64,000 nt of DNA from Arenicola marina. Lineage: Eukaryota; Annelida; Polychaeta; Arenicolidae. This document shows, piece after piece, positions 13,267 to 61,794 of the stretch. The notes below the pieces were generated by a model, which searched no databases, was not told the origin of the DNA, and saw only the letters and a program-made list of their open reading frames with translations. Location of the stretch: positions 35,622,035 to 35,686,034 of the forward strand of contig OZ025256.1 in assembly GCA_964019135.1 (NCBI GenBank), written 5' to 3'. How positions within the stretch are numbered: the stretch's first letter is position 1; every line of letters starts with the position of its first letter. The translations under genes were made by a program, and so were the position numbers.

Positions 13267-14592
13267 TGGCGTGAGGTAATGGTGTGAGGTAATGGTGTGA
13301 GGTAATGGCGTGAGGTAATGGCGTGAGGTAATGGTGTGAGGTAATGGCGTGAGGTAAGGGCATGAGGTAATGGTATGAGGTAATGGCGTGATGTAATGTT
13401 GTAAGATAATGGCGTGAGGTAATAATGTTAGGTAATGGCGTGAGGTAATGGTGTGAGGTAATGGCGTGAGGTAATGGCGTGAGGTAATGGCGTGAGGTAA
13501 TGGTGTTAGGTAATGGCGTGAGGTAATGGCGTGAGGTAATGGCGTGAGGTAATGGCGTGAGGTAATGGTGTGAGGTAACGGTATGAGGTAATGGTGTGAG
13601 GTAATGGTGTGAGGTAATGGCGTGAGGTAATGGCGTGAGGTAATGGTGTGAGGTAATGGTGTGAGGTAATGGCGTGAGGTAATGGCGTGAGGTAATGGCG
13701 TGAGGTAATGGCGTGAGGTAATGGCGTGAGGTAATGGTGTGAGGTAATGGCGTGAGATAATGGCGTGAGGTAATGGTATGAGGTATGGGCGTGAGTTAAT
13801 GGCGTGAGGTAATGGCGTGAGGTAATAGTGTGAGGTAATGGCGTGAGGTAATGACGTTAGGTAATGGCCTGAGGTAATGGGGTGAGGTAATGGCGTGAGG
13901 TAATGGCGTGAGGTAATGGCGTGACGTAAGAGTGTGAGGTAATGGTGTGAGGTAATGGCGTGACGTAATTGTGTGAGGTAATGGCGTGAGGTAATCGCGT
14001 GAGGTAATGGCTTGAGGTAATGGTGTGAGGTAATTGCGTGAGGTAATGGGGTGAGGCAATGGCGTGAGGTAATGATGTGAGGTAATGGTGTGAAGTAATG
14101 GCCTGAGGTAATGACGTGAGGTAATGGGGTGAGGTAATGGCGTGAGGTAATGGCGTGAGGTAATGGCGTGAGGTAATGGCGTGAGGTAATGGCGTGAGGT
14201 AATGGTGTGAGGTAATGGTGTGAGGTAATGGTGTAAGGTAATGGCGTGAGGTAATGGCGTGAGGTAATGGCGTGAGGTAATGGCGTGAGGTAATGGTGTG
14301 AGGTAATGGTGTGAGGTAATGGTGTAAGGTAATGGCGTGAGGTAATGGCGTGAGGTAATGGTGTGAGGTAATGGTGTGAGGTAATGGTGTAAGGTAATGG
14401 CGTGAGGTAATGGCGTGAGGTAATGGCGTGAGGTAATGGTGTAAGGTAATGGTGTGAGGTAATGGCGTCAGGTAATGGTGTGAGGTAATGGTGTGAGGTA
14501 ATGGCGCGAGGTAATGGCGTGAGGTAATGGCGTGAGGTAATGGCGTGGGGTAATGACGTGAGGTAATGGCGTGAGGTAATGGTGTGAGGTAA
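13267..14592 (+). repeat. 1,326-bp tandem duplication, copy 2
   Basis: Same unit order as copy 1; AACGGTATG is at 13,577 (12,251 + 1,326) and GTCAGG at 14,467 (13,141 + 1,326). I saw no mismatch in the parts I compared. The junction at about 13,266 joins the GTAATGACG/GTGTGAGG context of the end to the GGCGTGAGG/GTGTGAGG context of the start. Sequence from about 13,435 onward is also the left copy of the much larger duplication described at 36,591. Confidence 0.86.
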
Positions 14593-15343
14593 TGGTGTGA
14601 GGTAATGGCGTGAGGTAATGGCGTGCGGTAGTGGTGTGAGGTAATGGCGTGAGGTAAAGGCATGAGGTAATGGTATGAGGTAATGGCGTGATGTAATGTT
14701 GTAAGATAATGGCGTGAGGTAATAATGTTAGGTAATGGCGTGAGGTAATGGTGTGAGGTAAGAACGTGAGGTAATGGTCTGAGGTAATAGTGTGAGGTAA
14801 CGGTGTGAAGTAATGGTGCAAGGTACTGGTATGAGGTAATGACGTGAGGTAATGGTGTGAGGTAATGGTGTGAGGTAATGGTGTAAGGTAATGGTATGAG
14901 GTAATGGCGTGATTTAATGTTGTAAGGTAATGGCGTGAGGTAATGACGTTAGGTAATGGTGTGAGGTTATGGCGTGAGTTAATGGTGCAAGGTAATGGTA
15001 TGCGGTAATGGCGTGAGGTAATGACGTTAGGTAATGGCGTGAGGTAATGGCTTGAGGTAATGACGTGAGGTAATGGCGTGAGGTAATGACGTGAGGTAAG
15101 GGCGTGAGGTAATGGCGTGAGTTCATAGTGTGACGTAATGGCGTGAGGTAATGGCGTGAGGTAATGGCGTGAGGTAATGGCGTGAGGTAAGAGCCTGAGG
15201 TAATGCGTGAGGTAATGGCGTGAGGTAAGAGCCTGGGGTAATGGCGTGAGGTAATGGCGTGAGGTAAAGGCGTGAGGTAATGGTGTTAGGTAATGGCGTG
15301 GGGTAATGGCGTGAGGTTGTGACGTGAGGTAATGGCGTGACGT
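14593..15343 (+). repeat. Copy of 9,433-10,183 type sequence (offset 5,160)
   Basis: Offset 5,160 is 397 units minus 1 bp, matching the one 12-bp unit at 10,039. The 12-bp unit here is at 15,199-15,210. Directly after it three units (39 bp) carrying the CGCGTGAGATAAG marker are missing: GCCTGGGG lies at 15,230 where the offset predicts 15,269. The same shortened form recurs at 38,355. Confidence 0.82.
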
Positions 15344-17521
15344 AAGAGCGTGAGGTAATGGTGTGAGGTAATGGCGTGAGGTAATTGAGTGAGGTAATGG
15401 CGTGAGGTAATGGTGTGAGGTAATGGCGTGAGGTAATGACGTTAGGTAATGGCGTGAGGTAATGGCGTGAGGTAATGGTGTGAGGTAATAGTGTGAGGTA
15501 ATGGCGTGAGGTAATGACGTTAGGTAATGGCGTGAGGTAATGGGGTGAGGTAATGGCGTGAGGTAATGGCGTGAGGTAATGGCGTGACGTAAGAGTGTGA
15601 GACAATGGTGTGAGGTAATGGCGTGAGGTAATTGTGTGAGGTAATGGCGTGAGGTAATAGCGTGAGGTAATGGCTTGAGGTAATGGTATGAGGTATGGGC
15701 GTGAGTTAATGGCGTAAGGTAATGGCGTGAGGTAATAGTGTGAGGTAATGGCGTGAGGTAATGACGTTAGGTAATGGCGTGAGGTAATGGGGTGAGGTAA
15801 TGGCGTGAGATAATGGCGTGAGGTAATGGTATGAGGTATGGGCGTGAGTTAATGGCGTGAGGTAATGGCGTGAGGTAATAGTGTGAGGTAATGGCGTGAG
15901 GTAATGACGTTAGGTAATGGCCTGAGGTAATGGGGTGAGGTAATGGCGTGAGGTAATGGCGTGAGGTAATGGCGTGACGTAAGAGTGTGAGGTAATGGTG
16001 TGAGGTAATGGCGTGACGTAATTGTGTGAGGTAATGGCGTGAGGTAATCGCGTGAGGTAATGGCTTGAGGTAATGGTGTGAGGTAATTGCGTGAGGTAAT
16101 GGGGTGAGGCAATGGCGTGAGGTAATGATGTGAGGTAATGGTGTGAAGTAATGGCCTGAGGTAATGACGTGAGGTAATGGGGTGAGGCAATGGCGTGAGG
16201 TAATGACGTGAGGTAATGGTGTGAAGTAATGGCGTGAGGTAATGACGTGAGGTAATGGGGTGAGGTAATGGCGTGAGGTAATGGCGCGAGGTAATGGCGT
16301 GAGGTAATGGCGTGAGGTAATGGCTTGAGTTAATGGTGTGAGGTAATGGCGTGAGGTAATGGGGTGAGGAAATGGTGTGAGGTAATGGTGTGAGGTAATG
16401 GCGTGAGGTAATGGTGTGAGGTAATGGTGTGAGGTAATGGTGTAAGGTAATGCCGTGAGGTAATGGCGTGAGGTAATGGTGTAAGGTAATGGTGTGAGGT
16501 AATGGCGTCAGGTAATGGTGTGAGGTAATGGTGTGAGGTAATGGCGCGAGGTAATGGCGTGAGGTAATGGCGTGAGGTAATGGTGTGAGGTAATAGTGTG
16601 AGGTAATGGCGTGAGGTAATGACGTTAGGTAATGGCGTGAGGTAATGGGGTGAGGTAATGGCGTGAGGTAATGGCGTGAGGTAATGGCGTGACGTAAGAG
16701 TGTGAGATAATGGTGTGAGGTAATGGCGTGAGGTAATTGTGTGAGGTAATGGCGTGAGGTAATAGCGTGAGGTAATGGCTTGAGGTAATGGTATGAGGTA
16801 TGGGCGTGAGTTAATGGCGTAAGGTAATGGCGTGAGGTAATAGTGTGAGGTAATGGCGTGAGGTAATGACGTTAGGTAATGGCGTGAGGTAATGGGGTGA
16901 GGTAATGGCGTGAGGTAATGGCGTGAGGTAATGGTATGAGGTATGGGCGTGAGTTAATGGCGTGAGGTAATGGCGTGAGGTAATAGTGTGAGGTAATGGC
17001 GTGAGGTAATGACGTTAGGTAATGGCCTGAGGTAATGGGGTGAGGTAATGGCGTGAGGTAATGGCGTGAGGTAATGGCGTGACGTAAGAGTGTGAGGTAA
17101 TGGTGTGAGGTAATGGCGTGAGGTAATTGTGTGAGGTAATGGCGTGAGGTAATCGCGTGAGGTAATGGCTTGAGGTAATGGTGTGAGGTAATTGCGTGAG
17201 GTAATGGGGTGAGGCAATGGCGTGAGGTAATGATGTGAGGTAATGGTGTGAAGTAATGGCGTGAGGTAATGACGTGAGGTAATGGGGTGAGGCAATGGCG
17301 TGAGGTAATGGCTTGAGGTAATGGTGTGAGGTAATTGCGTGAGGTAATGGTGTGAGGCAATGGCGTGAGGTAATGACGTGAGGTAATGGTGTGAAGTAAT
17401 GGCGTGAGGTAATGGCGTGAGGTAATGGCGTGAGGTAATGGTGTGAGGTAATGGTGTGAAGTAATGGCGTGAGGTAAGAGCCTGAGGTAATGGCGTGAGG
17501 TAATTGTGTGAGGTAATGGCG

Positions 17522-20500
17522 TGAGGTAATGGCGTGAGGTAAGAGCCTGAGGTAATGGCGTGAGGTAATTGTGTGAGGTAATGGCGTGAGGTAATGGCGT
17601 GAGGTAATGGCGTGAGGTAATGGTGTAAGGTAATGGTGTGAGGTAATGGCGTCAGGTAATGGTGTGAGGTAATGGTGTGAGGTAATGGCGTGAGGTAATG
17701 GCGTGAGGTAATTGTGTGAGGTAATGGCGTGAGGTAATGGCGTGAGGTAAGAGCCTGAGGTAATGGCGTGAGGTAATTGTGTGAGGTAATGGCGTGAGGT
17801 AATGGCGTGAGGTAATGGCGTGAGGTAATGGTGTGAGGTAATGGTGTGAGGTAATGGCGTCAGGTAATGGTGTGAGGTAATGGTGTGAGGTAATGGCGTG
17901 AGGTAATGGCGTGAGGTCATAGTGTGACGTAATGGCGTGAGGTAATGGCGTGAGGTAATGGCGTGAGGTAAGAGCCTGAGGTAATGGCGTGAGGTAATTG
18001 TGTGAGGTAATGGCGTGAGGTAATGGCGTGAGGTAATGGCGTGAGGTAAGAGCCTGAGGTAATGCGTGAGATAATCGCGTGAGATAAGAGCCTGAGGTAA
18101 TGGCGTGAGGTAATGGCGTGAGGTAAGAGCCTGAGGTAATGGTGTGAGGTAATGGCGTGAGGTAAAGGCGTGAGGTAATGGTGTGAGGTAATGGCGTGAG
18201 GTAAAGGCGTGAGGTAATGGTGTGAGGTAATGGCGTGGGGTAATGGCGTGAGGTTGTGACGTGAGGTAATGGCGTGACGTAAGAGCGTGAGGTAATGGTG
18301 TGAGGTAATGGCGTGAGGTAATTGAGTGAGGTAATGGCGTGAGGTAATGGTGTGAGGTAATGGCGTGAGCTAATGACGTTAGGTAATGGCGTGAGGTAAT
18401 GGCGTGAGGTAAGAGCCTGGGGTAATGGCGTGAGGTAATGGCGTGAGGTAAAGGCGTGAGGTAATGGTGTGAGGTAATGGCGTGGGGTAATGGCGTGAGG
18501 TTGTGACGTGAGGTAATGGCGTGACGTAAGAGCGTGAGGTAATGGTGTGAGGTAATGGCGTGAGGTAATTGAGTGAGGTAATGGCGTGAGGTAATGGTGT
18601 GAGGTAATGGCGTGAGCTAATGACGTTAGGTAATGGCGTGAGGTAATGGCGTGAGGTAATGGTGTGAGGTAATAGTGTGAGGTAATGGCGTGAGGTAATG
18701 ACGTTAGGTAATGGCGTGAGGTAATGGGGTGAGGTAATGGCGTGAGGTAATGGCGTGAGGTAATGGCGTGACGTAAGAGTGTGAGATAATGGTGTGAGGT
18801 AATGGCGTGAGGTAATTGTGTGAGGTAATGGCGTGAGGTAATAGCGTGAGGTATTGGCTTGAGGTAATGGTGTGAGGTAATTGCGTGAGGTAATGGTGTG
18901 AGGCAATGGCGTGAGGTAATGACGTGAGGTAATGGTGTGAAGTAATGGCGTGAGGTAATGACGTGAGGTAATGGGGTGAGGTAATGGCGTGAGGTAATGG
19001 CGTGAGGTAATGGCTTGAGGTAATGGTATGAGGTATGGGCGTGAGTTAATGGCGTAAGGTAATGGCGTGAGGTAATAGTGTGAGGTAATGGCGTGAGGTA
19101 ATGACGTTAGGTAATGGCGTGAGGTAATGGGGTGAGGTAATGGCGTGAGGTAATGGCGTGAGGTAATGGTATGAGGTATGGGCGTGAGTTAATGGCGTGA
19201 GGTAATGGCGTGAGGTAATAGTGTGAGGTAATGGCGTGAGGTAATGACGTTAGGTAATGGCCTGAGGTAATGGGGTGAGGTAATGGCGTGAGGTAATGGC
19301 GTGAGGTAATCGCGTGACGTAAGAGTGTGAGGTAATGGTGTGAGGTAATGACGTGAGGTAATTGTGTGAGGTAATGGCGTGAGGTAATCGCGTGAGGTAA
19401 TGGCTTGAGGTAATGGTGTGAGGTAATTGCGTGAGGTAATGGGGTGAGGCAATGGCGTGAGGTAATGATGTGAGGTAATGGTGTGAAGTAATGGCGTGAG
19501 GTAATGGCTTGAGTTAATGGTGTAAGGTAATGGCGTGAGGTAAGGGCGTGAGGAAATGGCGTGAGGTAATGACGTGAGGTAATGGGGTGAGGTAATGGCG
19601 TGAGATAATGGCGAGAGGTAATGGCGTGAGGTAATGGCGTGAGGTAATGGCTTGAGTTAATGGTGTGAGGTAATGGCGTGAGGTAAGGGCGTGAGGAAAT
19701 GGCGTGAGGTAATGGTGTGAGGTAATGGCGTGAGGTAATGGCTTGAGATTATGGTGTGAGGTAATAACGTGAGGTAATGACGTGAGGTATTGGCGTGAGG
19801 TAATGGCGTGAGGTAATGGCGTGAGGTAATGGCGTGAGGTAATGGCGTGAGGTAATGGCGTGAGGTAAGAGCCTGAGGTAATGGCGTGAGGTAATTATGT
19901 GAGGTAATGGCGTGAGGTAAGAGCCTGAGGTAATGCGTGAGGTAATCGCGTGAGATAAGAGCCTGAGGTAATGGCGTGAGGTAATGGCGTGAGGTAAGAG
20001 CTTGGGGTAATGGCGTGAGGTAATGGCGTGAGGTAAAGGCGTGAGGTAATGGTGTTAGTTAATGGCGTGGGGTAATGGCGTGAGGTTGTGGCGTGAGGTA
20101 ATGGCGTGACGTAAGAGCGTGAGGTAATGGCGTGAGGTAATATCGTGAGGTAATGGCTTGAGGTAATGGTGTGAGGTAATTGCGCGAGGTAATGGTGTGA
20201 GGCAATGGCGTGAGGTAATGACGTGAGGTAATGGTGTGAGGTAATGGTGTGAGGTAATGGCGTCAGGTAATGGTGTGAGGTAATGGTGTGAGGTAATGGC
20301 GTGAGGTAATGGCGTGAGGTAATGGCGTGAGGTAATGGCGTGGGGTAATGACGTGAGGTAATGGCGTGAGGTAATGGTGTGAGGTAATGGTGTGAGGTAA
20401 TGGCGTGAGGTAATGGCGTGCGGTAGTGGTGTGAGGTAATGGCGTGAGGTAAAGGCATGAGGTAATGGTATGAGGTAATGGCGTGATGTAATGTTGTAAG

Positions 20501-20990
20501 ATAATGGCGTGAGGTAATAATGTTAGGTAATGGCGTGAGGTAATGGTGTGAGGTAAGAACGTGAGGTAATGGTCTGAGGTAATAGTGTGAGGTAATGGTG
20601 TGAAGTAATGGTGCAAGGTACTGGTATGAGGTAATGACGTGAGGTAATGGTGTGAGGTAATGGTGTGAGGTAATGTTGTAAGGTAATGGTGTGAGGTAAT
20701 GGCGTGAGGTAATGGCGTGCGGTAGTGGTGTGAGGTAATGGCGTGAGGTAAAGGCATGAGGTAATGGTATGAGGTAATGGCGTGATGTAATGTTGTAAGA
20801 TAAAGGCGTGAGGTAATAATGTTAGGTAATGGCGTGAGGTAATGGTGTGAGGTAAGAACGTGAGGTAATGGTCTGAGGTAATAGTGTGAGGTAACGGTGT
20901 GAAGTAATGGTGCAAGGTACTGGTATGAGGTAATGACGTGAGGTAATGGTGTGAGGTAATGGTGTGAGGTAATGGTGTAAGGTAATGGTA
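17522..20990 (+). repeat. 2,936/3,482-bp HOR module, first copy
   Basis: From 17,522 to about 18,750 the sequence recurs at offset 3,482 (268 units minus 2 bp). From about 19,300 to 20,990 it recurs at offset 2,936 (226 units minus 2 bp). The difference, 546 bp or 42 units, is present here and absent from the second copy. The module introduces markers not seen earlier in the window: the GAGATTATGG/TAATAACG pair near 19,745, TAATATCG near 20,130, TTGCGCGAGG near 20,180 and GAGCTAATGACG near 18,367. Confidence 0.82.
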
Positions 20991-21003
20991 TGAGGTAATG
21001 GCG

Positions 21004-23930
21004 TCAGGTAATGGCGTGAGGTAAGAGCCTGAGGTAATGGCGTGAGGTAATTGTGTGAGGTAATGGCGTGAGGTAATGGCGTGAGGTAATGGCGTGAGGT
21101 AATGGTGTAAGGTAATGGTGTGAGGTAATGGCGTCAGGTAATGGTGTGAGGTAATGGTGTGAGGTAATGGCGTGAGGTAATGGCGTGAGGTAATTGTGTG
21201 AGGTAATGGCGTGAGGTAATGGCGTGAGGTAAGATCCTGAGGTAATGGCGTGAGGTAATTGTGTGAGGTAATGGCGTGAGGTAATGGCGTGAGGTAATGG
21301 CGTGAGGTAATGGTGTAAGGTAATGGTGTGAGGTAATGGCGTCAGGTAATGGTGTGAGGTAATGGTGTGAGGTAATGGCGTGAGGTAATGGCGTGAGGTC
21401 ATAGTGTGACGTAATGGCGTGAGGTAATGGCGTGAGGTAATGGCGTGAGGTAAGAGCCTGAGGTAATGGCGTGAGGTAATTGTGTGAGGTAATGGCGTGA
21501 GGTAATGGCGTGAGGTAATGGCGTGAGGTAAGAGCCTGAGGTAATGCGTGAGATAATCGCGTGAGATAAGAGCCTGAGGTAATGGCGTGAGGTAATGGCG
21601 TGAGGTAAGAGCCTGAGGTAATGGTGTGAGGTAATGGCGTGAGGTAAAGGCGTGAGGTAATGGTGTGAGGTAATGGCGTGAGGTAAAGGCGTGAGGTAAT
21701 GGTGTGAGGTAATGGCGTGGGGTAATGGCGTGAGGTTGTGACGTGAGGTAATGGCGTGACGTAAGAGCGTGAGGTAATGGTGTGAGGTAATGGCGTGAGG
21801 TAATTGAGTGAGGTAATGGCGTGAGGTAATGGTGTGAGGTAATGGCGTGAGCTAATGACGTTAGGTAATGGCGTGAGGTAATGGCGTGAGGTAAGAGCCT
21901 GGGGTAATGGCGTGAGGTAATGGCGTGAGGTAAAGGCGTGAGGTAATGGTGTGAGGTAATGGCGTGGGGTAATGGCGTGAGGTTGTGACGTGAGGTAATG
22001 GCGTGACGTAAGAGCGTGAGGTAATGGTGTGAGGTAATGGCGTGAGGTAATTGAGTGAGGTAATGGCGTGAGGTAATGGTGTGAGGTAATGGCGTGAGCT
22101 AATGACGTTAGGTAATGGCGTGAGGTAATGGCGTGAGGTAATGGTGTGAGGTAATAGTGTGAGGTAATGGCGTGAGGTAATGACGTTAGGTAATGGCGTG
22201 AGGTAATGGGGTGAGGTAATGGCGTGAGGTAATGGCGTGAGGTAATCGCGTGACGTAAGAGTGTGAGGTAATGGTGTGAGGTAATGACGTGAGGTAATTG
22301 TGTGAGGTAATGGCGTGAGGTAATCGCGTGAGGTAATGGCTTGAGGTAATGGTGTGAGGTAATTGCGTGAGGTAATGGGGTGAGGCAATGGCGTGAGGTA
22401 ATGATGTGAGGTAATGGTGTGAAGTAATGGCGTGAGGTAATGGCTTGAGTTAATGGTGTAAGGTAATGGCGTGAGGTAAGGGCGTGAGGAAATGGCGTGA
22501 GGTAATGACGTGAGGTAATGGGGTGAGGTAATGGCGTGAGATAATGGCGAGAGGTAATGGCGTGAGGTAATGGCGTGAGGTAATGGCTTGAGTTAATGGT
22601 GTGAGGTAATGGCGTGAGGTAAGGGCGTGAGGAAATGGCGTGAGGTAATGGTGTGAGGTAATGGCGTGAGGTAATGGCTTGAGATTATGGTGTGAGGTAA
22701 TAACGTGAGGTAATGACGTGAGGTATTGGCGTGAGGTAATGGCGTGAGGTAATGGCGTGAGGTAATGGCGTGAGGTAATGGCGTGAGGTAATGGCGTGAG
22801 GTAAGAGCCTGAGGTAATGGCGTGAGGTAATTATGTGAGGTAATGGCGTGAGGTAAGAGCCTGAGGTAATGCGTGAGGTAATCGCGTGAGATAAGAGCCT
22901 GAGGTAATGGCGTGAGGTAATGGCGTGAGGTAAGAGCTTGGGGTAATGGCGTGAGGTAATGGCGTGAGGTAAAGGCGTGAGGTAATGGTGTTAGTTAATG
23001 GCGTGGGGTAATGGCGTGAGGTTGTGGCGTGAGGTAATGGTGTGACGTAAGAGCGTGAGGTAATGGCGTGAGGTAATATCGTGAGGTAATGGCTTGAGGT
23101 AATGGTGTGAGGTAATTGCGCGAGGTAATGGTGTGAGGCAATGGCGTGAGGTAATGACGTGAGGTAATGGTGTGAGGTAATGGTGTGAGGTAATGGCGTC
23201 AGGTAATGGTGTGAGGTAATGGTGTGAGGTAATGGCGTGAGGTAATGGCGTGAGGTAATGGCGTGAGGTAATGGCGTGGGGTAATGACGTGAGGTAATGG
23301 CGTGAGGTAATGGTGTGAGGTAATGGTGTGAGGTAATGGCGTGAGGTAATGGCGTGCGGTAGTGGTGTGAGGTAATGGCGTGAGGTAAAGGCATGAGGTA
23401 ATGGTATGAGGTAATGGCGTGATGTAATGTTGTAAGATAATGGCGTGAGGTAATAATGTTAGGTAATGGCGTGAGGTAATGGTGTGAGGTAAGAACGTGA
23501 GGTAATGGTCTGAGGTAATAGTGTGAGGTAATGGTGTGAAGTAATGGTGCAAGGTACTGGTATGAGGTAATGACGTGAGGTAATGGTGTGAGGTAATGGT
23601 GTGAGGTAATGGTGTAAGGTAATGGTGTGAGGTAATGGCGTGAGGTAATGGCGTGCGGTAGTGGTGTGAGGTAATGGCGTGAGGTAAAGGCATGAGGTAA
23701 TGGTATGAGGTAATGGCGTGATGTAATGTTGTAAGATAAAGGCGTGAGGTAATAATGTTAGGTAATGGCGTGAGGTAATGGTGTGAGGTAAGAACGTGAG
23801 GTAATGGTCTGAGGTAATAGTGTGAGGTAACGGTGTGAAGTAATGGTGCAAGGTACTGGTATGAGGTAATGACGTGAGGTAATGGTGTGAGGTAATGGTG
23901 TGAGGTAATGGTGTAAGGTAATGGTATGAG
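21004..23930 (+). repeat. 2,936/3,482-bp HOR module, second copy
   Basis: Copy of 17,522 onward, with 12-bp units at 21,540 and 22,865 equivalent to 18,058 and 19,929. It has a GTAAGATCCTG unit near 21,230 where its relatives have GTAAGAGCCTG. It also has a GGTGTGACG unit at 23,039-23,046 where most relatives have GGCGTGACG. The same GGTGTGACG variant marks the junction at 33,540. Confidence 0.8.
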
Positions 23931-24413
23931 GTAATGGCGTGATTTAATGTTGTAAGGTAATGGCGTGAGGTAATGACGTTAGGTAATGGTGTGAGGTAAT
24001 GGCGTGAGGTAATGGCGTGAGGTAAGAGCCTGAGGTAATGGCGTGAGGTAATGGCGTGAGGTAATGGTGTGAGGTAATGGTGTGAGGTAATGGTGTAAGG
24101 TAATGGCGTGAGGTAATGGCGTGAGGTAATGGCGTGAGGTAATGGCGTGAGGTAATGGTGTGAGGTAATGGTGTGAGGTAATGGCGTGAGGTAATGGTGT
24201 GAGGTAATGGTGTGAGGTAATGGTGTAAGGTAATGGCGTGAGGTAATGGCGTGAGGTAATGGTGTAAGGTAATGGTGTGAGGTAATGGCGTCAGGTAATG
24301 GTGTGAGGTAATGGTGTGAGGTAATGGCGCGAGGTAATGGCGTGAGGTAATGGCGTGAGGTAATGGCGTGGGGTAATGACGTGAGGTAATGGCGTGAGGT
24401 AATGGTGTGAGGT

Positions 24414-49287: not shown

Positions 49288-51620
49288 TGGCGTGAGGTAA
49301 TGGTGTGAGGTAAGAACGTGAGGTAATGGTCTGAGGTAATAGTGTGAGGTAACGGTGTGAAGTAATGGTGCAAGGTACTGGTATGAGGTAATGACGTGAG
49401 GTAATGGTGTGAGGTAATGGTGTGAGGTAATGGTGTAAGGTAATGGTATGAGGTAATGGCGTCAGGTAATGGCGTGAGGTAAGAGCCTGAGGTAATGGCG
49501 TGAGGTAATTGTGTGAGGTAATGGCGTGAGGTAATGGCGTGAGGTAATGGCGTGAGGTAATGGTGTAAGGTAATGGTGTGAGGTAATGGCGTCAGGTAAT
49601 GGTGTGAGGTAATGGTGTGAGGTAATGGCGTGAGGTAATGGCGTGAGGTAATTGTGTGAGGTAATGGCGTGAGGTAATGGCGTGAGGTAAGAGCCTGAGG
49701 TAATGGCGTGAGGTAATTGTGTGAGGTAATGGCGTGAGGTAATGGCGTGAGGTAATGGCGTGAGGTAATGGTGTAAGGTAATGGTGTGAGGTAATGGCGT
49801 CAGGTAATGGTGTGAGGTAATGGTGTGAGGTAATGGCGTGAGGTAATGGCGTGAGGTCATAGTGTGACGTAATGGCGTGAGGTAATGGCGTGAGGTAATG
49901 GCGTGAGGTAAGAGCCTGAGGTAATGGCGTGAGGTAATTGTGTGAGGTAATGGCGTGAGGTAATGGCGTGAGGTAATGGCGTGAGGTAAGAGCCTGAGGT
50001 AATGCGTGAGATAATCGCGTGAGATAAGAGCCTGAGGTAATGGCGTGAGGTAATGGCGTGAGGTAAGAGCCTGAGGTAATGGTGTGAGGTAATGGCGTGA
50101 GGTAAAGGCGTGAGGTAATGGTGTGAGGTAATGGCGTGAGGTAAAGGCGTGAGGTAATGGTGTGAGGTAATGGCGTGGGGTAATGGCGTGAGGTTGTGAC
50201 GTGAGGTAATGGCGTGACGTAAGAGCGTGAGGTAATGGTGTGAGGTAATGGCGTGAGGTAATTGAGTGAGGTAATGGCGTGAGGTAATGGTGTGAGGTAA
50301 TGGCGTGAGCTAATGACGTTAGGTAATGGCGTGAGGTAATGGCGTGAGGTAAGAGCCTGGGGTAATGGCGTGAGGTAATGGCGTGAGGTAAAGGCGTGAG
50401 GTAATGGTGTGAGGTAATGGCGTGGGGTAATGGCGTGAGGTTGTGACGTGAGGTAATGGCGTGACGTAAGAGCGTGAGGTAATGGTGTGAGGTAATGGCG
50501 TGAGGTAATTGAGTGAGGTAATGGCGTGAGGTAATGGTGTGAGGTAATGGCGTGAGCTAATGACGTTAGGTAATGGCGTGAGGTAATGGCGTGAGGTAAT
50601 GGTGTGAGGTAATAGTGTGAGGTAATGGCGTGAGGTAATGACGTTAGGTAATGGCGTGAGGTAATGGGGTGAGGTAATGGCGTGAGGTAATGGCGTGAGG
50701 TAATCGCGTGACGTAAGAGTGTGAGGTAATGGTGTGAGGTAATGACGTGAGGTAATTGTGTGAGGTAATGGCGTGAGGTAATCGCGTGAGGTAATGGCTT
50801 GAGGTAATGGTGTGAGGTAATTGCGTGAGGTAATGGGGTGAGGCAATGGCGTGAGGTAATGATGTGAGGTAATGGTGTGAAGTAATGGCGTGAGGTAATG
50901 GCTTGAGTTAATGGTGTAAGGTAATGGCGTGAGGTAAGGGCGTGAGGAAATGGCGTGAGGTAATGACGTGAGGTAATGGGGTGAGGTAATGGCGTGAGAT
51001 AATGGCGAGAGGTAATGGCGTGAGGTAATGGCGTGAGGTAATGGCTTGAGTTAATGGTGTGAGGTAATGGCGTGAGGTAAGGGCGTGGGGAAATGGCGTG
51101 AGGTAATGGTGTGAGCTAATGGCGTGAGGTAATGGCTTGAGATTATGGTGTGAGGTAATAACGTGAGGTAATGACGTGAGGTATTGGCGTGAGGTAATGG
51201 CGTGAGGTAATGGCGTGAGGTAATGGCGTGAGGTAATGGCGTGAGGTAATGGCGTGAGGTAAGAGCCTGAGGTAATGGCGTGAGGTAATTATGTGAGGTA
51301 ATGGCGTGAGGTAAGAGCCTGAGGTAATGCGTGAGGTAATCGCGTGAGATAAGAGCCTGAGGTAATGGCGTGAGGTAATGGCGTGAGGTAAGAGCTTGGG
51401 GTAATGGCGTGAGGTAATGGCGTGAGGTAAAGGCGTGAGGTAATGGTGTTAGTTAATGGCGTGGGGTAATGGCGTGAGGTTGTGGCGTGAGGTAATGGCG
51501 TGACGTAAGAGCGTGAGGTAATGGCGTGAGGTAATATCGTGAGGTAATGGCTTGAAATAATGGTGTGAGGTAATTGCGCGAGGTAATGGTGTGAGGCAAT
51601 GGCGTGAGGTAATGACGTGA
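44225..51620 (+). repeat. Internal HOR modules of 2,911/2,326/2,936 bp
   Basis: Inside the 10,161-bp unit, related modules recur at 43,484, 46,395 and 48,721, spaced 2,911 and 2,326 bp. A second set (44,225 to 49,462, and 45,082 to 50,319) recurs at 5,237 bp. In the other copy the equivalents are 53,645, 56,556, 58,882 and 61,818, spaced 2,911, 2,326 and 2,936 bp. The 2,911-bp spacing is the 2,936-bp module minus 25 bp (one 12-bp and one 13-bp unit). The repeating pair is therefore about 5.24-5.26 kb. Confidence 0.8.
46081..46096 (+). other. Scar of a 25-bp loss that removed a 12-bp unit
   Basis: Two GTAAGAGCCTGAGG units are adjacent here. In relatives (for example 22,855-22,905) they are separated by the 12-bp unit and the CGCGTGAGATAAG unit. 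The loss turns the 2,936-bp module into 2,911 bp. It is consistent with recombination between the two identical GAGCCTG units. Confidence 0.85.
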
Positions 51621-51633
51621 GGTAATGGTGTGA

Positions 51634-54600
51634 GGTTGTGACGTGAGGTAATGGCGTGACGTAAGAGCGTGAGGTAATGGTGTGAGGTAATGGCGTGAGG
51701 TAATTGAGTGAGGTAATGGCGTGAGGTAATGGTGTGAGGTAATGGCGTGAGCTAATGACGTTAGGTAATGGCGTGAGGTAATGGCGTGAGGTAAGAGCCT
51801 GGGGTAATGGCGTGAGGTAATGGCGTGAGGTAAAGGCGTGAGGTAATGGTGTGAGGTAATGGCGTGGGGTAATGGCGTGAGGTTGTGACGTGAGGTAATG
51901 GCGTGACGTAAGAGCGTGAGGTAATGGTGTGAGGTAATGGCGTGAGGTAATTGAGTGAGGTAATGGCGTGAGGTAATGGTGTGAGGTAATGGCGTGAGCT
52001 AATGACGTTAGGTAATGGCGTGAGGTAATGGCGTGAGGTAATGGTGTGAGGTAATAGTGTGAGGTAATGGCGTGAGGTAATGACGTTAGGTAATGGCGTG
52101 AGGTAATGGGGTGAGGTAATGGCGTGAGGTAATGGCGTGAGGTAATGGCGTGACGTAAGAGTGTGAGATAATGGTGTGAGGTAATGGCGTGAGGTAATTG
52201 TGTGAGGTAATGGCGTGAGGTAATAGCGTGAGGTATTGGCTTGAGGTAATGGTGTGAAGTAATTGCGTGAGGTAATGGTGTGAGGCAATGGCGTGAGGTA
52301 ATGACGTGAGGTAATGGTGTGAAGTAATGGCGTGAGGTAATGACGTGAGGTAATGGGGTGAGGTAATGGCGTGAGGTAATGGCGTGAGGTAATGGCTTGA
52401 GGTAATGGTATGAGGTATGGGCGTGAGTTAATGGCGTAAGGTAATGGCGTGAGGTAATAGTGTGAGGTAATGGCGTGAGGTAATGACGTTAGGTAATGGC
52501 GTGAGGTAATGGGGTGAGGTAATGGCGTGAGGTAATGGCGTGAGGTAATGGTATGAGGTATGGGCGTGAGTTAATGGCGTGAGGTAATGGCGTGAGGTAA
52601 TAGTGTGAGGTAATGGCGTGAGGTAATGACGTTAGGTAATGGCCTGAGGTAATGGGGTGAGGTAATGGCGTGAGGTAATGGCGTGAGGTAATCGCGTGAC
52701 GTAAGAGTGTGAGGTAATGGTGTGAGGTAATGACGTGAGGTAATTGTGTGAGGTAATGGCGTGAGGTAATCGCGTGAGGTAATGGCTTGAGGTAATGGTG
52801 TGAGGTAATTGCGTGAGGTAATGGGGTGAGGCAATGGCGTGAGGTAATGATGTGAGGTAATGGTGTGAAGTAATGGCGTGAGGTAATGGCTTGAGTTAAT
52901 GGTGTAAGGTAATGGCGTGAGGTAAGGGCGTGAGGAAATGGCGTGAGGTAATGACGTGAGGTAATGGGGTGAGGTAATGGCGTGAGATAATGGCGAGAGG
53001 TAATGGCGTGAGGTAATGGCGTGAGGTAATGGCTTGAGTTAATGGTGTGAGGTAATGGCGTGAGGTAAGGGCGTGAGGAAATGGCGTGAGGTAATGGTGT
53101 GAGGTAATGGCGTGAGGTAATGGCTTGAGATTATGGTGTGAGGTAATAACGTGAGGTAATGACGTGAGGTATTGGCGTGAGGTAATGGCGTGAGGTAATG
53201 GCGTGAGGTAATGGCGTGAGGTAATGGCGCGAGGTAATGGCGTGAGGTAAGAGCCTGAGGTAATGGCGTGAGGTAATTATGTGAGGTAATGACGTGAGGT
53301 AAGAGCCTGAGGTAATGCGTGAGGTAATCGCGTGAGATAAGAGCCTGAGGTAATGGCGTGAGGTAATGGCGTGAGGTAAGAGCTTGGGGTAATGGCGTGA
53401 GGTAATGGCGTGAGGTAAAGGCGTGAGGTAATGGTGTTAGTTAATGGCGTGGGGTAATGGCGTGAGGTTGTGGCGTGAGGTAATGGCGTGACGTAAGAGC
53501 GTGAGGTAATGGCGTGTGGTAATATCGTGAGGTAATGGCTTGAGGTAATGGTGTGAGGTAATTGCGCGAGGTAATGGTGTGAGGCAATGGCGTGAGGTAA
53601 TGACGTGAGGTAATGGTGTGAGGTAATGGTGTGAGGTAATGGCGTCAGGTAATGGTGTGAGGTAATGGTGTGAGGTAATGGCGTGAGGTAATGGCGTGAG
53701 GTAATGGCGTGAGGTAATGGCGTGGGGTAATGACGTGAGGTAATGGCGTGAGGTAATGGTGTGAGGTAATGGTGTGAGGTAATGGCGTGAGGTAATGGCG
53801 TGCGGTAGTGGTGTGAGGTAATGGCGTGAGGTAAAGGCATGAGGTAATGGTATGAGGTAATGGCGTGATGTAATGTTGTAAGATAATGGCGTGAGGTAAT
53901 AATGTTAGGTAATGGCGTGAGGTAATGGTGTGAGGTAAGAACGTGAGGTAATGGTCTGAGGTAATAGTGTGAGGTAATGGTGTGAAGTAATGGTGCAAGG
54001 TACTGGTATGAGGTAATGACGTGAGGTAATGGTGTGAGGTAATGGTGTGAGGTAATGGTGTAAGGTAATGGTGTGAGGTAATGGCGTGAGGTAATGGCGT
54101 GCGGTAGTGGTGTGAGGTAATGGCGTGAGGTAAAGGCATGAGGTAATGGTATGAGGTAATGGCGTGATGTAATGTTGTAAGATAAAGGCGTGAGGTAATA
54201 ATGTTAGGTAATGGCGTGAGGTAATGGTGTGAGGTAAGAACGTGAGGTAATGGTCTGAGGTAATAGTGTGAGGTAACGGTGTGAAGTAATGGTGCAAGGT
54301 ACTGGTATGAGGTAATGACGTGAGGTAATGGTGTGAGGTAATGGTGTGAGGTAATGGTGTAAGGTAATGGTATGAGGTAATGGCGTCAGGTAATGGCGTG
54401 AGGTAAGAGCCTGAGGTAATGGCGTGAGGTAATTGTGTGAGGTAATGGCGTGAGGTAATGGCGTGAGGTAATGGCGTGAGGTAATGGTGTAAGGTAATGG
54501 TGTGAGGTAATGGCGTCAGGTAATGGTGTGAGGTAATGGTGTGAGGTAATGGCGTGAGGTAATGGCGTGAGGTAATTGTGTGAGGTAATGGCGTGAGGTA

Positions 54601-57600
54601 ATGGCGTGAGGTAAGAGCCTGAGGTAATGGCGTGAGGTAATTGTGTGAGGTAATGGCGTGAGGTAATGGCGTGAGGTAATGGCGTGAGGTAATGGTGTAA
54701 GGTAATGGTGTGAGGTAATGGCGTCAGGTAATGGTGTGAGGTAATGGTGTGAGGTAATGGCGTGAGGTAATGGCGTGAGGTCATAGTGTGACGTAATGGC
54801 GTGAGGTAATGGCGTGAGGTAATGGCGTGAGGTAAGAGCCTGAGGTAATGGCGTGAGGTAATTGTGTGAGGTAATGGCGTGAGGTAATGGCGTGAGGTAA
54901 TGGCGTGAGGTAAGAGCCTGAGGTAATGCGTGAGATAATCGCGTGAGATAAGAGCCTGAGGTAATGGCGTGAGGTAATGGCGTGAGGTAAGAGCCTGAGG
55001 TAATGGTGTGAGGTAATGGCGTGAGGTAAAGGCGTGAGGTAATGGTGTGAGGTAATGGCGTGAGGTAAAGGCGTGAGGTAATGGTGTGAGGTAATGGCGT
55101 GGGGTAATGGCGTGAGGTTGTGACGTGAGGTAATGGCGTGACGTAAGAGCGTGAGGTAATGGTGTGAGGTAATGGCGTGAGGTAATTGAGTGAGGTAATG
55201 GCGTGAGGTAATGGTGTGAGGTAATGGCGTGAGCTAATGACGTTAGGTAATGGCGTGAGGTAATGGCGTGAGGTAAGAGCCTGGGGTAATGGCGTGAGGT
55301 AATGGCGTGAGGTAAAGGCGTGAGGTAATGGTGTGAGGTAATGGCGTGGGGTAATGGCGTGAGGTTGTGACGTGAGGTAATGGCGTGACGTAAGAGCGTG
55401 AGGTAATGGTGTGAGGTAATGGCGTGAGGTAATTGAGTGAGGTAATGGCGTGAGGTAATGGTGTGAGGTAATGGCGTGAGCTAATGACGTTAGGTAATGG
55501 CGTGAGGTAATGGCGTGAGGTAATGGTGTGAGGTAATAGTGTGAGGTAATGGCGTGAGGTAATGACGTTAGGTAATGGCGTGAGGTAATGGGGTGAGGTA
55601 ATGGCGTGAGGTAATGGCGTGAGGTAATCGCGTGACGTAAGAGTGTGAGGTAATGGTGTGAGGTAATGACGTGAGGTAATTGTGTGAGGTAATGGCGTGA
55701 GGTAATCGCGTGAGGTAATGGCTTGAGGTAATGGTGTGAGGTAATTGCGTGAGGTAATGGGGTGAGGCAATGGCGTGAGGTAATGATGTGAGGTAATGGT
55801 GTGAAGTAATGGCGTGAGGTAATGGCTTGAGTTAATGGTGTAAGGTAATGGCGTGAGGTAAGGGCGTGAGGAAATGGCGTGAGGTAATGACGTGAGGTAA
55901 TGGGGTGAGGTAATGGCGTGAGATAATGGCGAGAGGTAATGGCGTGAGGTAATGGCGTGAGGTAATGGCTTGAGTTAATGGTGTGAGGTAATGGCGTGAG
56001 GTAAGGGCGTGAGGAAATGGCGTGAGGTAATGGTGTGAGGTAATGGCGTGAGGTAATGGCTTGAGATTATGGTGTGAGGTAATAACGTGAGGTAATGACG
56101 TGAGGTATTGGCGTGAGGTAATGGCGTGAGGTAATGGCGTGAGGTAATGGCGTGAGGTAATGGCGTGAGGTAATGGCGTGAGGTAAGAGCCTGAGGTAAT
56201 GGCGTGAGGTAATTATGTGAGGTAATGGCGTGAGGTAAGAGCCTGAGGTAAGAGCCTGAGGTAATGGCGTGAGGTAATGGCGTGAGGTAAGAGCTTGGGG
56301 TAATGGCGTGAGGTAATGGCGTGAGGTAAAGGCGTGAGGTAATGGTGTTAGTTAATGGCGTGGGGTAATGGCGTGAGGTTGTGGCGTGAGGTAATGGCGT
56401 GACGTAAGAGCGTGAGGTAATGGCGTGAGGTAATATCGTGAGGTAATGGCTTGAGGTAATGGTGTGAGGTAATTGCGCGAGGTAATGGTGTGAGGCAATG
56501 GCGTGAGGTAATGACGTGAGGTAATGGTGTGAGGTAATGGTGTGAGGTAATGGCGTCAGGTAATGGTGTGAGGTAATGGTGTGAGGTAATGGCGTGAGGT
56601 AATGGCGTGAGGTAATGGCGTGAGGTAATGGCGTGGGGTAATGACGTGAGGTAATGGCGTGAGGTAATGGTGTGAGGTAATGGTGTGAGGTAATGGCGTG
56701 AGGTAATGGCGTGCGGTAGTGGTGTGAGGTAATGGCGTGAGGTAAAGGCATGAGGTAATGGTATGAGGTAATGGCGTGATGTAATGTTGTAAGATAATGG
56801 CGTGAGGTAATAATGTTAGGTAATGGCGTGAGGTAATGGTGTGAGGTAAGAACGTGAGGTAATGGTCTGAGGTAATAGTGTGAGGTAATGGTGTGAAGTA
56901 ATGGTGCAAGGTACTGGTATGAGGTAATGACGTGAGGTAATGGTGTGAGGTAATGGTGTGAGGTAATGGTGTAAGGTAATGGTGTGAGGTAATGGCGTGA
57001 GGTAATGGCGTGCGGTAGTGGTGTGAGGTAATGGCGTGAGGTAAAGGCATGAGGTAATGGTATGAGGTAATGGCGTGATGTAATGTTGTAAGATAAAGGC
57101 GTGAGGTAATAATGTTAGGTAATGGCGTGAGGTAATGGTGTGAGGTAAGAACGTGAGGTAATGGTCTGAGGTAATAGTGTGAGGTAACGGTGTGAAGTAA
57201 TGGTGCAAGGTACTGGTATGAGGTAATGACGTGAGGTAATGGTGTGAGGTAATGGTGTGAGGTAATGGTGTAAGGTAATGGTATGAGGTAATGGCGTGAT
57301 TTAATGTTGTAAGGTAATGGCGTGAGGTAATGACGTTAGGTAATGGTGTGAGGTAATGGCGTGAGGTAATGGCGTGAGGTAAGAGCCTGAGGTAATGGCG
57401 TGAGGTAATGGCGTGAGGTAATGGTGTGAGGTAATGGTGTGAGGTAATGGTGTAAGGTAATGGCGTGAGGTAATGGCGTGAGGTAATGGCGTGAGGTAAT
57501 GGCGTGAGGTAATGGTGTGAGGTAATGGTGTGAGGTAATGGCGTGAGGTAATGGTGTGAGGTAATGGTGTGAGGTAATGGTGTAAGGTAATGGCGTGAGG

Positions 57601-60600
57601 TAATGGCGTGAGGTAATGGTGTAAGGTAATGGTGTGAGGTAATGGCGTCAGGTAATGGTGTGAGGTAATGGTGTGAGGTAATGGCGCGAGGTAATGGCGT
57701 GAGGTAATGGCGTGAGGTAATGGCGTGGGGTAATGACGTGAGGTAATGGCGTGAGGTAATGGTGTGAGGTAATGGTGTGAGGTAATGGCGTGAGGTAATT
57801 GCGTGCGGTAGTGGTGTGAGGTAATGGCGTGAGGTAAAAGCATGAGGTAATGGTATGAGGTAATGGCGTGATGTAATGTTGTAAGATAATGGCGTGAGGT
57901 AATAATGTTAGGTAATGGCGTGAGGTAATGGTGTGAGGTAAGAACGTGAGGTAATGGTCTGAGGTAATAGTGTGAGGTAACGGTGTGAAGTAATGGTGCA
58001 AGGTACTGGTATGAGGTAATGACGTGAGGTAATGGTGTGAGGTAATGGTGTGAGGTAATGGTGTAAGGTAATGGTATGAGGTAATGGCGTGATTTAATGT
58101 TGTAAGGTAATGGCGTGAGGTAATGACGTTAGGTAATGGTGTGAGGTAATGGCGTGAGTTAATGGTGCAAGGTAATGGTATGCGGTAATGGCGTGAGGTA
58201 ATGACGTTAGGTAATGGCGTGAGGTAATGGCGTGAGGTAATGACGTGAGGTAATGGCGTGAGGTAATGACGTGAGGTAAGGGCGTGAGGTAATGCGTGAG
58301 GTAATCGCGTGAGATAAGAGCCTGAGGTAATGGCGTGAGGTAATGGCGTGAGGTAAGAGCCTGGGGTAATGGCGTGAGGTAATGGCGTGAGGTAAAGGCG
58401 TGAGGTAATGGTGTTAGGTAATGGCGTGGGGTAATGGCGTGAGGTTGTGACGTGAGGTAATGGCGTGACGTAAGAGCGTGAGGTAATGGTGTGAGGTAAT
58501 GGCGTGAGGTAATTGAGTGAGGTAATGGCGTGAGGTAATGGTGTGAGGTAATGGCGTGAGGTAATGACGTTAGGTAATGGCGTGAGGTAATGGCGTGAGG
58601 TAATGGTGTGAGGTAATAGTGTGAGGTAATGGCGTGAGGTAATGACGTTAGGTAATGGCGTGAGGTAATGGGGTGAGGTAATGGCGTGAGGTAATGGCGT
58701 GAGGTTGTGGCGTGAGGTAATGGCGTGACGTAAGAGCGTGAGGTAATGGCGTGAGGTAATATCGTGAGGTAATGGCTTGAGGTAATGGTGTGAGGTAATT
58801 GCGCGAGGTAATGGTGTGAGGCAATGGCGTGAGGTAATGACGTGAGGTAATGGTGTGAGGTAATGGTGTGAGGTAATGGCGTCAGGTAATGGTGTGAGGT
58901 AATGGTGTGAGGTAATGGCGTGAGGTAATGGCGTGAGGTAATGGCGTGAGGTAATGGCGTGGGGTAATGACGTGAGGTAATGGCGTGAGGTAATGGTGTG
59001 AGGTAATGGTGTGAGGTAATGGCGTGAGGTAATGGCGTGCGGTAGTGGTGTGAGGTAATGGCGTGAGGTAAAGGCATGAGGTAATGGTATGAGGTAATGG
59101 CGTGATGTAATGTTGTAAGATAATGGCGTGAGGTAATAATGTTAGGTAATGGCGTGAGGTAATGGTGTGAGGTAAGAACGTGAGGTAATGGTCTGAGGTA
59201 ATAGTGTGAGGTAATGGTGTGAAGTAATGGTGCAAGGTACTGGTATGAGGTAATGACGTGAGGTAATGGTGTGAGGTAATGGTGTGAGGTAATGGTGTAA
59301 GGTAATGGTGTGAGGTAATGGCGTGAGGTAATGGCGTGCGGTAGTGGTGTGAGGTAATGGCGTGAGGTAAAGGCATGAGGTAATGGTATGAGGTAATGGC
59401 GTGATGTAATGTTGTAAGATAAAGGCGTGAGGTAATAATGTTAGGTAATGGCGTGAGGTAATGGTGTGAGGTAAGAACGTGAGGTAATGGTCTGAGGTAA
59501 TAGTGTGAGGTAACGGTGTGAAGTAATGGTGCAAGGTACTGGTATGAGGTAATGACGTGAGGTAATGGTGTGAGGTAATGGTGTGAGGTAATGGTGTAAG
59601 GTAATGGTATGAGGTAATGGCGTCAGGTAATGGCGTGAGGTAAGAGCCTGAGGTAATGGCGTGAGGTAATTGTGTGAGGTAATGGCGTGAGGTAATGGCG
59701 TGAGGTAATGGCGTGAGGTAATGGTGTAAGGTAATGGTGTGAGGTAATGGCGTCAGGTAATGGTGTGAGGTAATGGTGTGAGGTAATGGCGTGAGGTAAT
59801 GGCGTGAGGTAATTGTGTGAGGTAATGGCGTGAGGTAATGGCGTGAGGTAAGAGCCTGAGGTAATGGCGTGAGGTAATTGTGTGAGGTAATGGCGTGAGG
59901 TAATGGCGTGAGGTAATGGCGTGAGGTAATGGTGTAAGGTAATGGTGTGAGGTAATGGCGTCAGGTAATGGTGTGAGGTAATGGTGTGAGGTAATGGCGT
60001 GAGGTAATGGCGTGAGGTCATAGTGTGACGTAATGGCGTGAGGTAATGGCGTGAGGTAATGGCGTGAGGTAAGAGCCTGAGGTAATGGCGTGAGGTAATT
60101 GTGTGAGGTAATGGCGTGAGGTAATGGCGTGAGGTAATGGCGTGAGGTAAGAGCCTGAGGTAATGCGTGAGATAATCGCGTGAGATAAGAGCCTGAGGTA
60201 ATGGCGTGAGGTAATGGCGTGAGGTAAGAGCCTGAGGTAATGGTGTGAGGTAATGGCGTGAGGTAAAGGCGTGAGGTAATGGTGTGAGGTAATGGCGTGA
60301 GGTAAAGGCGTGAGGTAATGGTGTGAGGTAATGGCGTGGGGTAATGGCGTGAGGTTGTGACGTGAGGTAATGGCGTGACGTAAGAGCGTGAGGTAATGGT
60401 GTGAGGTAATGGCGTGAGGTAATTGAGTGAGGTAATGGCGTGAGGTAATGGTGTGAGGTAATGGCGTGAGCTAATGACGTTAGGTAATGGCGTGAGGTAA
60501 TGGCGTGAGGTAAGAGCCTGGGGTAATGGCGTGAGGTAATGGCGTGAGGTAAAGGCGTGAGGTAATGGTGTGAGGTAATGGCGTGGGGTAATGGCGTGAG

Positions 60601-61794
60601 GTTGTGACGTGAGGTAATGGCGTGACGTAAGAGCGTGAGGTAATGGTGTGAGGTAATGGCGTGAGGTAATTGAGTGAGGTAATGGCGTGAGGTAATGGTG
60701 TGAGGTAATGGCGTGAGCTAATGACGTTAGGTAATGGCGTGAGGTAATGGCGTGAGGTAATGGTGTGAGGTAATAGTGTGAGGTAATGGCGTGAGGTAAT
60801 GACGTTAGGTAATGGCGTGAGGTAATGGGGTGAGGTAATGGCGTGAGGTAATGGCGTGAGGTAATCGCGTGACGTAAGAGTGTGAGGTAATGGTGTGAGG
60901 TAATGACGTGAGGTAATTGTGTGAGGTAATGGCGTGAGGTAATCGCGTGAGGTAATGGCTTGAGGTAATGGTGTGAGGTAATTGCGTGAGGTAATGGGGT
61001 GAGGCAATGGCGTGAGGTAATGATGTGAGGTAATGGTGTGAAGTAATGGCGTGAGGTAATGGCTTGAGTTAATGGTGTAAGGTAATGGCGTGAGGTAAGG
61101 GCGTGAGGAAATGGCGTGAGGTAATGACGTGAGGTAATGGGGTGAGGTAATGGCGTGAGATAATGGCGAGAGGTAATGGCGTGAGGTAATGGCGTGAGGT
61201 AATGGCTTGAGTTAATGGTGTGAGGTAATGGCGTGAGGTAAGGGCGTGGGGAAATGGCGTGAGGTAATGGTGTGAGCTAATGGCGTGAGGTAATGGCTTG
61301 AGATTATGGTGTGAGGTAATAACGTGAGGTAATGACGTGAGGTATTGGCGTGAGGTAATGGCGTGAGGTAATGGCGTGAGGTAATGGCGTGAGGTAATGG
61401 CGTGAGGTAATGGCGTGAGGTAAGAGCCTGAGGTAATGGCGTGAGGTAATTATGTGAGGTAATGGCGTGAGGTAAGAGCCTGAGGTAATGCGTGAGGTAA
61501 TCGCGTGAGATAAGAGCCTGAGGTAATGGCGTGAGGTAATGGCGTGAGGTAAGAGCTTGGGGTAATGGCGTGAGGTAATGGCGTGAGGTAAAGGCGTGAG
61601 GTAATGGTGTTAGTTAATGGCGTGGGGTAATGGCGTGAGGTTGTGGCGTGAGGTAATGGCGTGACGTAAGAGCGTGAGGTAATGGCGTGAGGTAATATCG
61701 TGAGGTAATGGCTTGAAATAATGGTGTGAGGTAATTGCGCGAGGTAATGGTGTGAGGCAATGGCGTGAGGTAATGACGTGAGGTAATGGTGTGA
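51634..61794 (+). repeat. 10,161-bp tandem duplication, copy 2
   Basis: Begins at the junction near 51,634, where a GGTGTGAGG context runs directly into GGTTGTGACG, the same unit that starts copy 1 at 41,473. The 12-bp units lie at 53,311, 54,922, 58,288, 60,159 and 61,484. After 61,794 the array continues with the sequence that must originally have followed copy 1 (GTGTGAGG, GCGTCAGG, GCGTGGGG). This order is what a simple tandem duplication leaves. A private C at 53,230 creates a GGCGCGAGG unit. Confidence 0.92.
56242..56257 (+). other. Same 25-bp loss in the second 10-kb copy
   Basis: Identical arrangement exactly 10,161 bp after the scar at 46,081. The loss therefore came before the 10-kb duplication. 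Confidence 0.85.

What the first reader, a model, noticed from the sequence alone, without database searches (positions are those of the whole stretch)
13435..61794. Readable order of nested satellite duplications: 12.7 kb first, then 9.07 kb and 10.16 kb
Offsets between copies fit a history of successive tandem duplications. The right 12.7-kb copy (36,591-49,287) passes straight from the equivalent of 24,413 to the equivalent of 34,914. The left copy has a 9.07-kb duplication and a 1,378-bp segment between those points. The right copy and its downstream flank instead carry the 10,161-bp duplication. Lengths and counts of 12-bp units balance to the base. Few satellite arrays can be ordered this clearly from one stretch. 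A later loss of the 9-kb copy from the right side cannot be excluded.
Basis: partly seen in the sequence, partly recalled or inferred. Interest (0 to 1): 0.72.

Follow-up and report, generated by a model that had tools for sequence, protein, structure and literature searches.

The report
Nested duplications in a 13-bp satellite
A 100-kb run of one 13-letter repeat in an animal (probably annelid worm) genome grew by nested copy-paste events whose order can mostly be read from small shared changes; this is a clean example of ordinary satellite-DNA growth, not a new kind of element.

Summary
The whole window is one 13-bp satellite (GTGAGGTAATGGC); the complete array, bounded on both sides, runs from window -1505 to 98,327 (about 7,685 units, 160 variants). 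The 12.7-, 9.07- and 10.16-kb duplications and the stated offsets hold unit by unit with few differences: 9 substitutions in 12,644 bp, 4-5 in 8,719 bp, 2 in 10,161 bp. Difference counts alone do not order the events (no one-sided P below 0.05). Shared derived changes do. Both 10.16-kb copies share three substitutions and a 25-bp deletion absent from left and older copies, so that event followed the 12.7-kb split. Both 9.07-kb copies share an identical 65-bp deletion found nowhere else in the array; 13 places, the right copy included, keep the full form. 9.07 versus 10.16 kb is unresolved. '12.7 first' describes the sequence genealogy: a crossover between two haplotypes would give the same structure. 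It is also not the array's oldest duplication. Assembly error cannot be excluded without reads. Likely mechanism: in-register unequal exchange or template switching. A new member of a known kind.

The parts
1..64000 (+). Part of a single 13-bp satellite array, consensus GTGAGGTAATGGC; the full array spans window -1505 to 98,327
13414..24417 (+). Left copy (L) of the 12.7-kb duplication, head and body
   Evidence: offsets 23,156/23,221/23,196 to the right copy
15348..24417 (+). L1, first copy of the 9.07-kb tandem duplication (right edge near 24,418)
24418..33541 (+). L2, second copy of the 9.07-kb tandem duplication, with private unit indels (+91, -39, -156 bp); its last stretch is also the first copy of the 1,534-bp duplication
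33542..35075 (+).
34907..36608 (+). Tail of the left 12.7-kb copy; no difference from 47,603-49,304 in the units compared
36570..49304 (+). Right copy (R) of the 12.7-kb duplication; its junction with the left copy lies within about 36,570-36,608
39338..39402 (+). Five units (65 bp; placement can slide by 24 bp) kept in R and other copies, deleted in both L1 and L2: the character that ties L1 to L2
46082..46094 (+). Junction unit of the 25-bp deletion in R, shared with the second 10.16-kb copy (56,243)
41469..51629 (+). R1, first copy of the 10,161-bp tandem duplication
   Evidence: 782 units, 2 differ
51630..61790 (+). R2, second copy of the 10,161-bp tandem duplication
11906..13231 (+). First copy of a 1,326-bp tandem duplication at the left edge of L
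   Evidence: 104 units matched without difference
13232..14557 (+). Second copy of the 1,326-bp tandem duplication, overlapping the head of L
48529..51636 (+). C, an older partial copy of the same block (matches 20,071-23,178), used as outgroup

Best explanation
A single-locus 13-bp minisatellite in a probably annelid genome has grown to about 100 kb by successive segmental tandem duplications of about 0.2-12.7 kb. Shown: an ancestral block X, itself holding older repeats, exists as a left and a right lineage. The left lineage lost 65 bp, and its body is present twice in tandem (9.07 kb), followed by a 1,534-bp tandem duplication and small unit losses. The right lineage gained three substitutions and lost 25 bp, and a 10,161-bp stretch running from inside R into the downstream flank is present twice in tandem, both copies carrying those changes. 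Inferred: the copies arose by unequal sister-chromatid exchange or out-of-register template switching (break-induced replication) guided by the 13-bp unit, because the duplication junctions keep the unit register while most of the flanks tested show no longer homology than any two in-register places. The 12.7-kb duplication is most simply the older event on one chromosome. No selected function is needed.
For: Unit-exact tandem pairs and offsets. Polarised changes, in L1 coordinates: found only in R1 and R2 at 18,872, 19,899, 20,132, plus the 25-bp deletion; only in L1 at 20,665, 21,224, 23,029; only in L2 at 18,638; only in R1 at 16,949 (R2 does not reach it) and 23,991; R2 differs from R1 at 53,229 as well, a unit not polarised. 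The 65-bp deletion is placed identically in L1 and L2, with no mismatch to R over 600 and 450 bp. A scan of the whole array finds the deleted form (150 bp, up to 6 mismatches) at 2 places, L1 and L2, and the full form (215 bp, up to 8 mismatches) at 13 places, R included. Automated collapse of tandem copies, least divergent first, took 21 steps from 7,685 to 3,517 units; the left/right pair came up as tandem only at the last step, after the inner copies had been removed. Register: inside the array only three parsed units have a length other than 12 or 13 bp, at 8,617, 85,518 and 98,004, none at the junctions named here. Flank test over 13 units: 13 of 14 junction flanks do not exceed random in-register pairs at P<0.05; the exception is the left flank of the 12.7-kb junction (8 of 13 units, P 0.0054, uncorrected for 14 tests).
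Against: Only one character, the 65-bp deletion, unites L1 and L2, and it lies between near-identical direct repeats (25 equivalent placements), so recurrence, or conversion between neighbours, could mimic it. Divergence counts do not order the events: with 4 L1-L2 substitutions P is 0.33 (12.7 over 9.07), 0.07 (12.7 over 10.16) and 0.28 (9.07 over 10.16); with 5, the first is 0.46 and the last 0.17. One mismatch beside the 91-bp insertion in L2 is why the count may be 5. In the shorter flank test (6 units) the right flank of the 10.16-kb junction shares 3 of 6 units (P 0.033), so some local homology there is not excluded. The 13 full-form places are not independent, since many are copies of each other. 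The collapse is greedy and, for incomplete matches, discards the bases between the copies. Exchange between haplotypes and false duplication in the assembly are not excluded.
Confidence: 0.72

Rival explanations
1. Exchange between haplotypes: one haplotype already carried L1-L2-L3, another carried plain X. A single unequal crossover joined the first up to about 36,590 to the second from about 13,435. The 9.07-kb duplication would then be physically older than the 12.7-kb doubling although the sequence tree is the same.
For: Needs the same number of large events as the simple history; predicts the observed tree and the private changes on both sides. The left flank of the 12.7-kb junction is the one of 14 flanks with clearly longer local homology (8 of 13 units), as expected for homologous exchange.
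Against: Nothing positive requires a second haplotype. Only one genome was seen.
Confidence: 0.2
2. Later loss: the 9.07-kb duplication came first, the whole 23-kb left block was doubled, and the right side then lost its inner copy.
For: L1 and L3 are identical over about 1.4 kb, so such a deletion would leave no scar.
Against: R keeps the 65 bp that both L1 and L2, and no other place in the array, lack, and no derived change shared by R with L1 alone or L2 alone was found. It needs one more large event plus two identical deletions or a conversion.
Confidence: 0.05
3. Assembly artefact: one or more of the near-identical pairs (above all 10,161 bp with 2 differences and 7,485 bp with 2) are false duplications from heterozygous alleles or misjoined reads. 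This may hold for one pair only, so its odds overlap with those of the other readings.
For: Differences are as few as 2 in 10,161 bp; the contig holds 200 N in a stretch sampled elsewhere; no reads were available.
Against: No N in the 264 kb read here; copies meet unit-exactly in tandem. Neither is decisive.
Confidence: 0.15

Closest known systems
Hypervariable minisatellites studied by minisatellite variant repeat (MVR) maps and duplication-history reconstruction (WAMI: PMC2897807, passages seen; alignment of minisatellite maps: PMC2674676, listing and start of abstract only)
   Same: Short unit, variants usable as letters, growth by tandem duplication whose history can be rebuilt by parsimony; slippage, unequal exchange and conversion named as mechanisms.
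   Different: Here the array is about 100 kb with segmental duplications up to 12.7 kb; the WAMI passages seen describe single-unit duplications extended to two-unit types. No population data here.
Higher-order repeats of satellite arrays and the unequal-exchange and break-induced-replication models (review PMC8997354, passages seen)
   Same: Nested structure, very young large blocks inside older ones, exchange out of register.
   Different: No regular higher-order period; 13-bp unit; no evidence that this is a centromere. Tandem arrays occur in much of the chromosome sampled (at least 17% of the stretch in 7 of 10 2-kb samples).

Membership tests
Minisatellite / satellite array | Head-to-tail copies of a short unit over a long tract | tested here: met
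   7,682.8 copies of period 13 from window -1505 to 98,327
Minisatellite / satellite array | No coding function | tested here: inconclusive
   16 ORFs of at least 250 aa, up to 407 aa, all on the minus strand, whose consensus unit has no stop in any frame (read directly); period 13 shifts the frame each unit. No transcript data.
Higher-order repeat (HOR) array | Regular repetition of a multi-unit block of one length | tested here: not met
   Duplication lengths vary from 247 bp to 12,696 bp with no common period seen
Centromeric satellite | Occupied by centromeric histone or shared among chromosomes | not testable with these tools
   The exact doubled 26-bp unit occurs 692 times forward and 4 times reverse in the genome, all within the fetched region; weaker matches (83% and 76%) lie on C6 and C2. 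Chromatin data are absent.
Array grown by unequal exchange | Junctions keep the unit register | tested here: met
   No odd-length unit at the junctions of the 12.7-, 10.16-, 9.07-, 7.49-, 1.53-, 1.46- and 1.33-kb events

The most novel reading that the evidence does not exclude
The array records an unequal crossover between two diverged haplotypes: the left block with its 9.07-kb duplication from one and the plain right block from the other. Its junction would then be a recombination point whose order runs against naive reading of nested satellites, and many 'ordered' satellite histories would be allele genealogies rather than event orders.
Probability: 0.2. Interest if true: 0.45.

Novelty: new member of a known kind. 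Interest (0 to 1): 0.3.

Why it matters
It gives a fully bounded 100-kb single-locus array in which individual kilobase-scale duplications are young enough to be polarised one by one. That makes the size, register and homology needs of satellite growth measurable, and shows that difference counts alone would not have ordered the events while shared small deletions do.

Tried and rejected
Counting differences as a clock: none of the three pairwise orders reaches P<0.05. One search counted 6 differing L1-L2 units; I left out two, 16,598 and 24,225, that sit at unit indels: one search showed that a single 156-bp deletion explains 24,225 with no mismatch, and that the 91-bp insertion region leaves one mismatch (hence '4-5'). 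The row at 16,585 was left out of the L2-only substitutions for the same reason.

Agreement of R with L2 at 20,665, 21,224 and 23,029 looked at first like a recombinant; rejected because other copies carry the same state. The apparent excess of differences at the left end (13,244-13,401) lies outside the junction and was dropped.

Function through coding, and a centromere role: no support found, neither tested decisively. Species: the mitochondrial contig has cox1-trnN-cox2-trnD followed by trnY and trnG, which I recall as the annelid order; no species name was reached. Paper searches: no paper held all four terms of an annelid genome note with '867'; some searches gave background only. I do not claim that this array is absent from print.

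Full report
What was checked. The window lies at C9:35,622,035-35,686,034 of an 867-Mb, 762-contig genome. I fetched 100 kb on each side. The period-13 array runs from window -1505 to 98,327 with 7,682.8 copies and 84% matches to the consensus TGAGGTAATGGCG, which is the same unit in another frame. It is flanked on the left by a 40-bp satellite of 67.8 kb and on the right by many shorter arrays of other units. The exact doubled 26-bp unit occurs 692 times forward and 4 times reverse in the whole genome, and the fetched region accounts for all 692 and 4. Weaker matches lie on C6 (83%) and C2 (76%); that search skips simple repeats, so it is a lower bound.

Units. Parsing gave 7,685 units of 160 kinds (the last unit reaches into the flank). 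Of these 47 are 12 bp long and 42 of the 47 are one variant, CTGAGGTAATGC (48 in the slightly wider parse). Two random units agree with probability 0.12; the longest exact run in the real order is 426 units against 7-9 in five shuffles and 11-12 in three Markov shuffles. In the window 95.3% of units, and in the array 84.6%, lie in self-matches of at least 77 units with at most 10% differing units.

The duplications. Tandem pairs at unit level: 10,161 bp (782 units, 2 differ), 7,485 bp outside the window (576 units, 2 differ), 9,122/9,070 bp, 3,535 bp, 2,911 bp, 1,456 bp (0 differ), 1,378 bp, 1,326 bp (0 differ) and smaller ones. The left and right 12.7-kb copies match through offsets 23,156, 23,221, 23,196 and 12,696 with 9 substitutions in 12,644 bp compared, a 65-bp and a 25-bp indel. 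L1 and L2 differ by 4 clean substitutions in 8,719 bp (one search counts 6 units, two of them at indels), or 5 if the mismatch beside the 91-bp insertion is counted, and by indels of 91, 39 and 156 bp. R1 and R2 differ by 2 in 10,161 bp.

Polarity. For each differing unit between L1, L2 and R1 from 16,585 to 24,225 I listed every copy in the array with similar neighbours (at most 4 of 24 neighbouring units differing). The R state at 18,872, 19,899 and 20,132 is found only in R1 and R2; at 16,949 only in R1 (R2 does not reach it); at 23,991 only in R1. The L1 states at 20,665, 21,224 and 23,029 are found only in L1. The L2 state at 18,638 is found only in L2. At 13,505 the left state is shared with its 1,326-bp twin at 12,179, while the right copy and three more distant copies (-323, 2,809, 8,813) have the other state, so the left lineage probably changed there before the 1,326-bp duplication. 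The 25-bp stretch is present in L1, L2 and both C copies and missing in R1 and R2. The 65-bp stretch is missing in L1 and L2 at the identical place, with no mismatch to R in 600 and 450 bp. In the whole array the deleted form is found at 2 places, L1 and L2, and the full form at 13, among them R and copies near 1.7, 5.2, 7.7, 11.0, 64.6, 66.1, 68.8, 75.1, 82.6 and 87.7 kb; these 13 are not independent of each other.

Reading. R1 and R2 are sisters (4 shared derived characters). L1 and L2 are sisters (1 shared derived character). No derived character joining R to L1 alone or L2 alone was found. It does not by itself fix the physical order, because a crossover between two haplotypes gives the same tree. 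Greedy collapse of the least divergent tandem copies reached the left/right pair at the last of 21 steps, as nesting requires. '12.7 first' holds only among the three events named: repeats at offsets 2,936, 3,482 and 5,237 in and beside the copies are older, since the copies carry them.

Counts as a clock. One-sided binomial P: 12.7 over 9.07 kb 0.33, 12.7 over 10.16 kb 0.07, 9.07 over 10.16 kb 0.28; with 5 L1-L2 substitutions the first becomes 0.46 and the last 0.17.

Mechanism. The junctions keep the unit register. Of 14 flanks at seven events, 13 show no more shared units than random in-register pairs at P<0.05 and one (left flank of the 12.7-kb junction) shows 8 of 13, P 0.0054 uncorrected. 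With 6-unit flanks, tried on two events before the script stopped, the right flank of the 10.16-kb event had 3 of 6, P 0.033. Guidance by the short unit itself, through unequal sister exchange or break-induced template switching, is the best fit; these tools cannot separate the two. The review passages seen (PMC8997354) describe both models, and the WAMI passages (PMC2897807) describe duplication histories of minisatellite maps.

Setting. Of ten 2-kb samples along C9, 7 are at least 17% tandem repeat, one 2%, two none; two of the 7 are wholly tandem. Minisatellites are thus common on this chromosome and the window is not special in that respect. The mitochondrial gene order points to an annelid (the order itself is recalled).

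Verdict. Real and neatly resolved, but ordinary in kind. The order is supported for 12.7 kb before 10.16 kb, moderately supported for 12.7 kb before 9.07 kb, and open for 9.07 kb against 10.16 kb. Untested and decisive: raw reads and other haplotypes.

Noticed in passing
window coordinates 101,437-101,806 (right flank, locus L022): A short inverted array of the same 13-bp unit (28.5 copies on the minus strand) lies 3.1 kb beyond the end of the main array; just before it is another period-13 array (TGCACCCTCACCC, 131.6 copies, 99,562-101,295) with a CCTCAC core in common.
   Followed up: partly
69,367-84,336 (right of the window): A 7,485-bp tandem pair with 2 of 576 units differing, about as young as the 10.16-kb pair.
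   Followed up: partly
-99,999 to -2,328 (left flank): A 40-bp satellite of 67.8 kb and, beyond it, a 26-bp satellite of at least 28.9 kb adjoin the array, separated by stretches under 1 kb.
   Followed up: no
8,617: One of only three 14-bp units in the array sits at the edge of older self-matches (8,620/8,621), perhaps a scar of an exchange that slipped by one base.
   Followed up: no
1-64,000: Strong strand bias: 27,472 G against 3,857 C on the plus strand; the minus strand of the unit has no stop codon, so chance ORFs up to 407 aa appear there.
   Followed up: partly
G000:C9:34,500,001-34,502,000 (L038): 200 N in this sampled stretch suggest that the contig is scaffolded.
   Followed up: no
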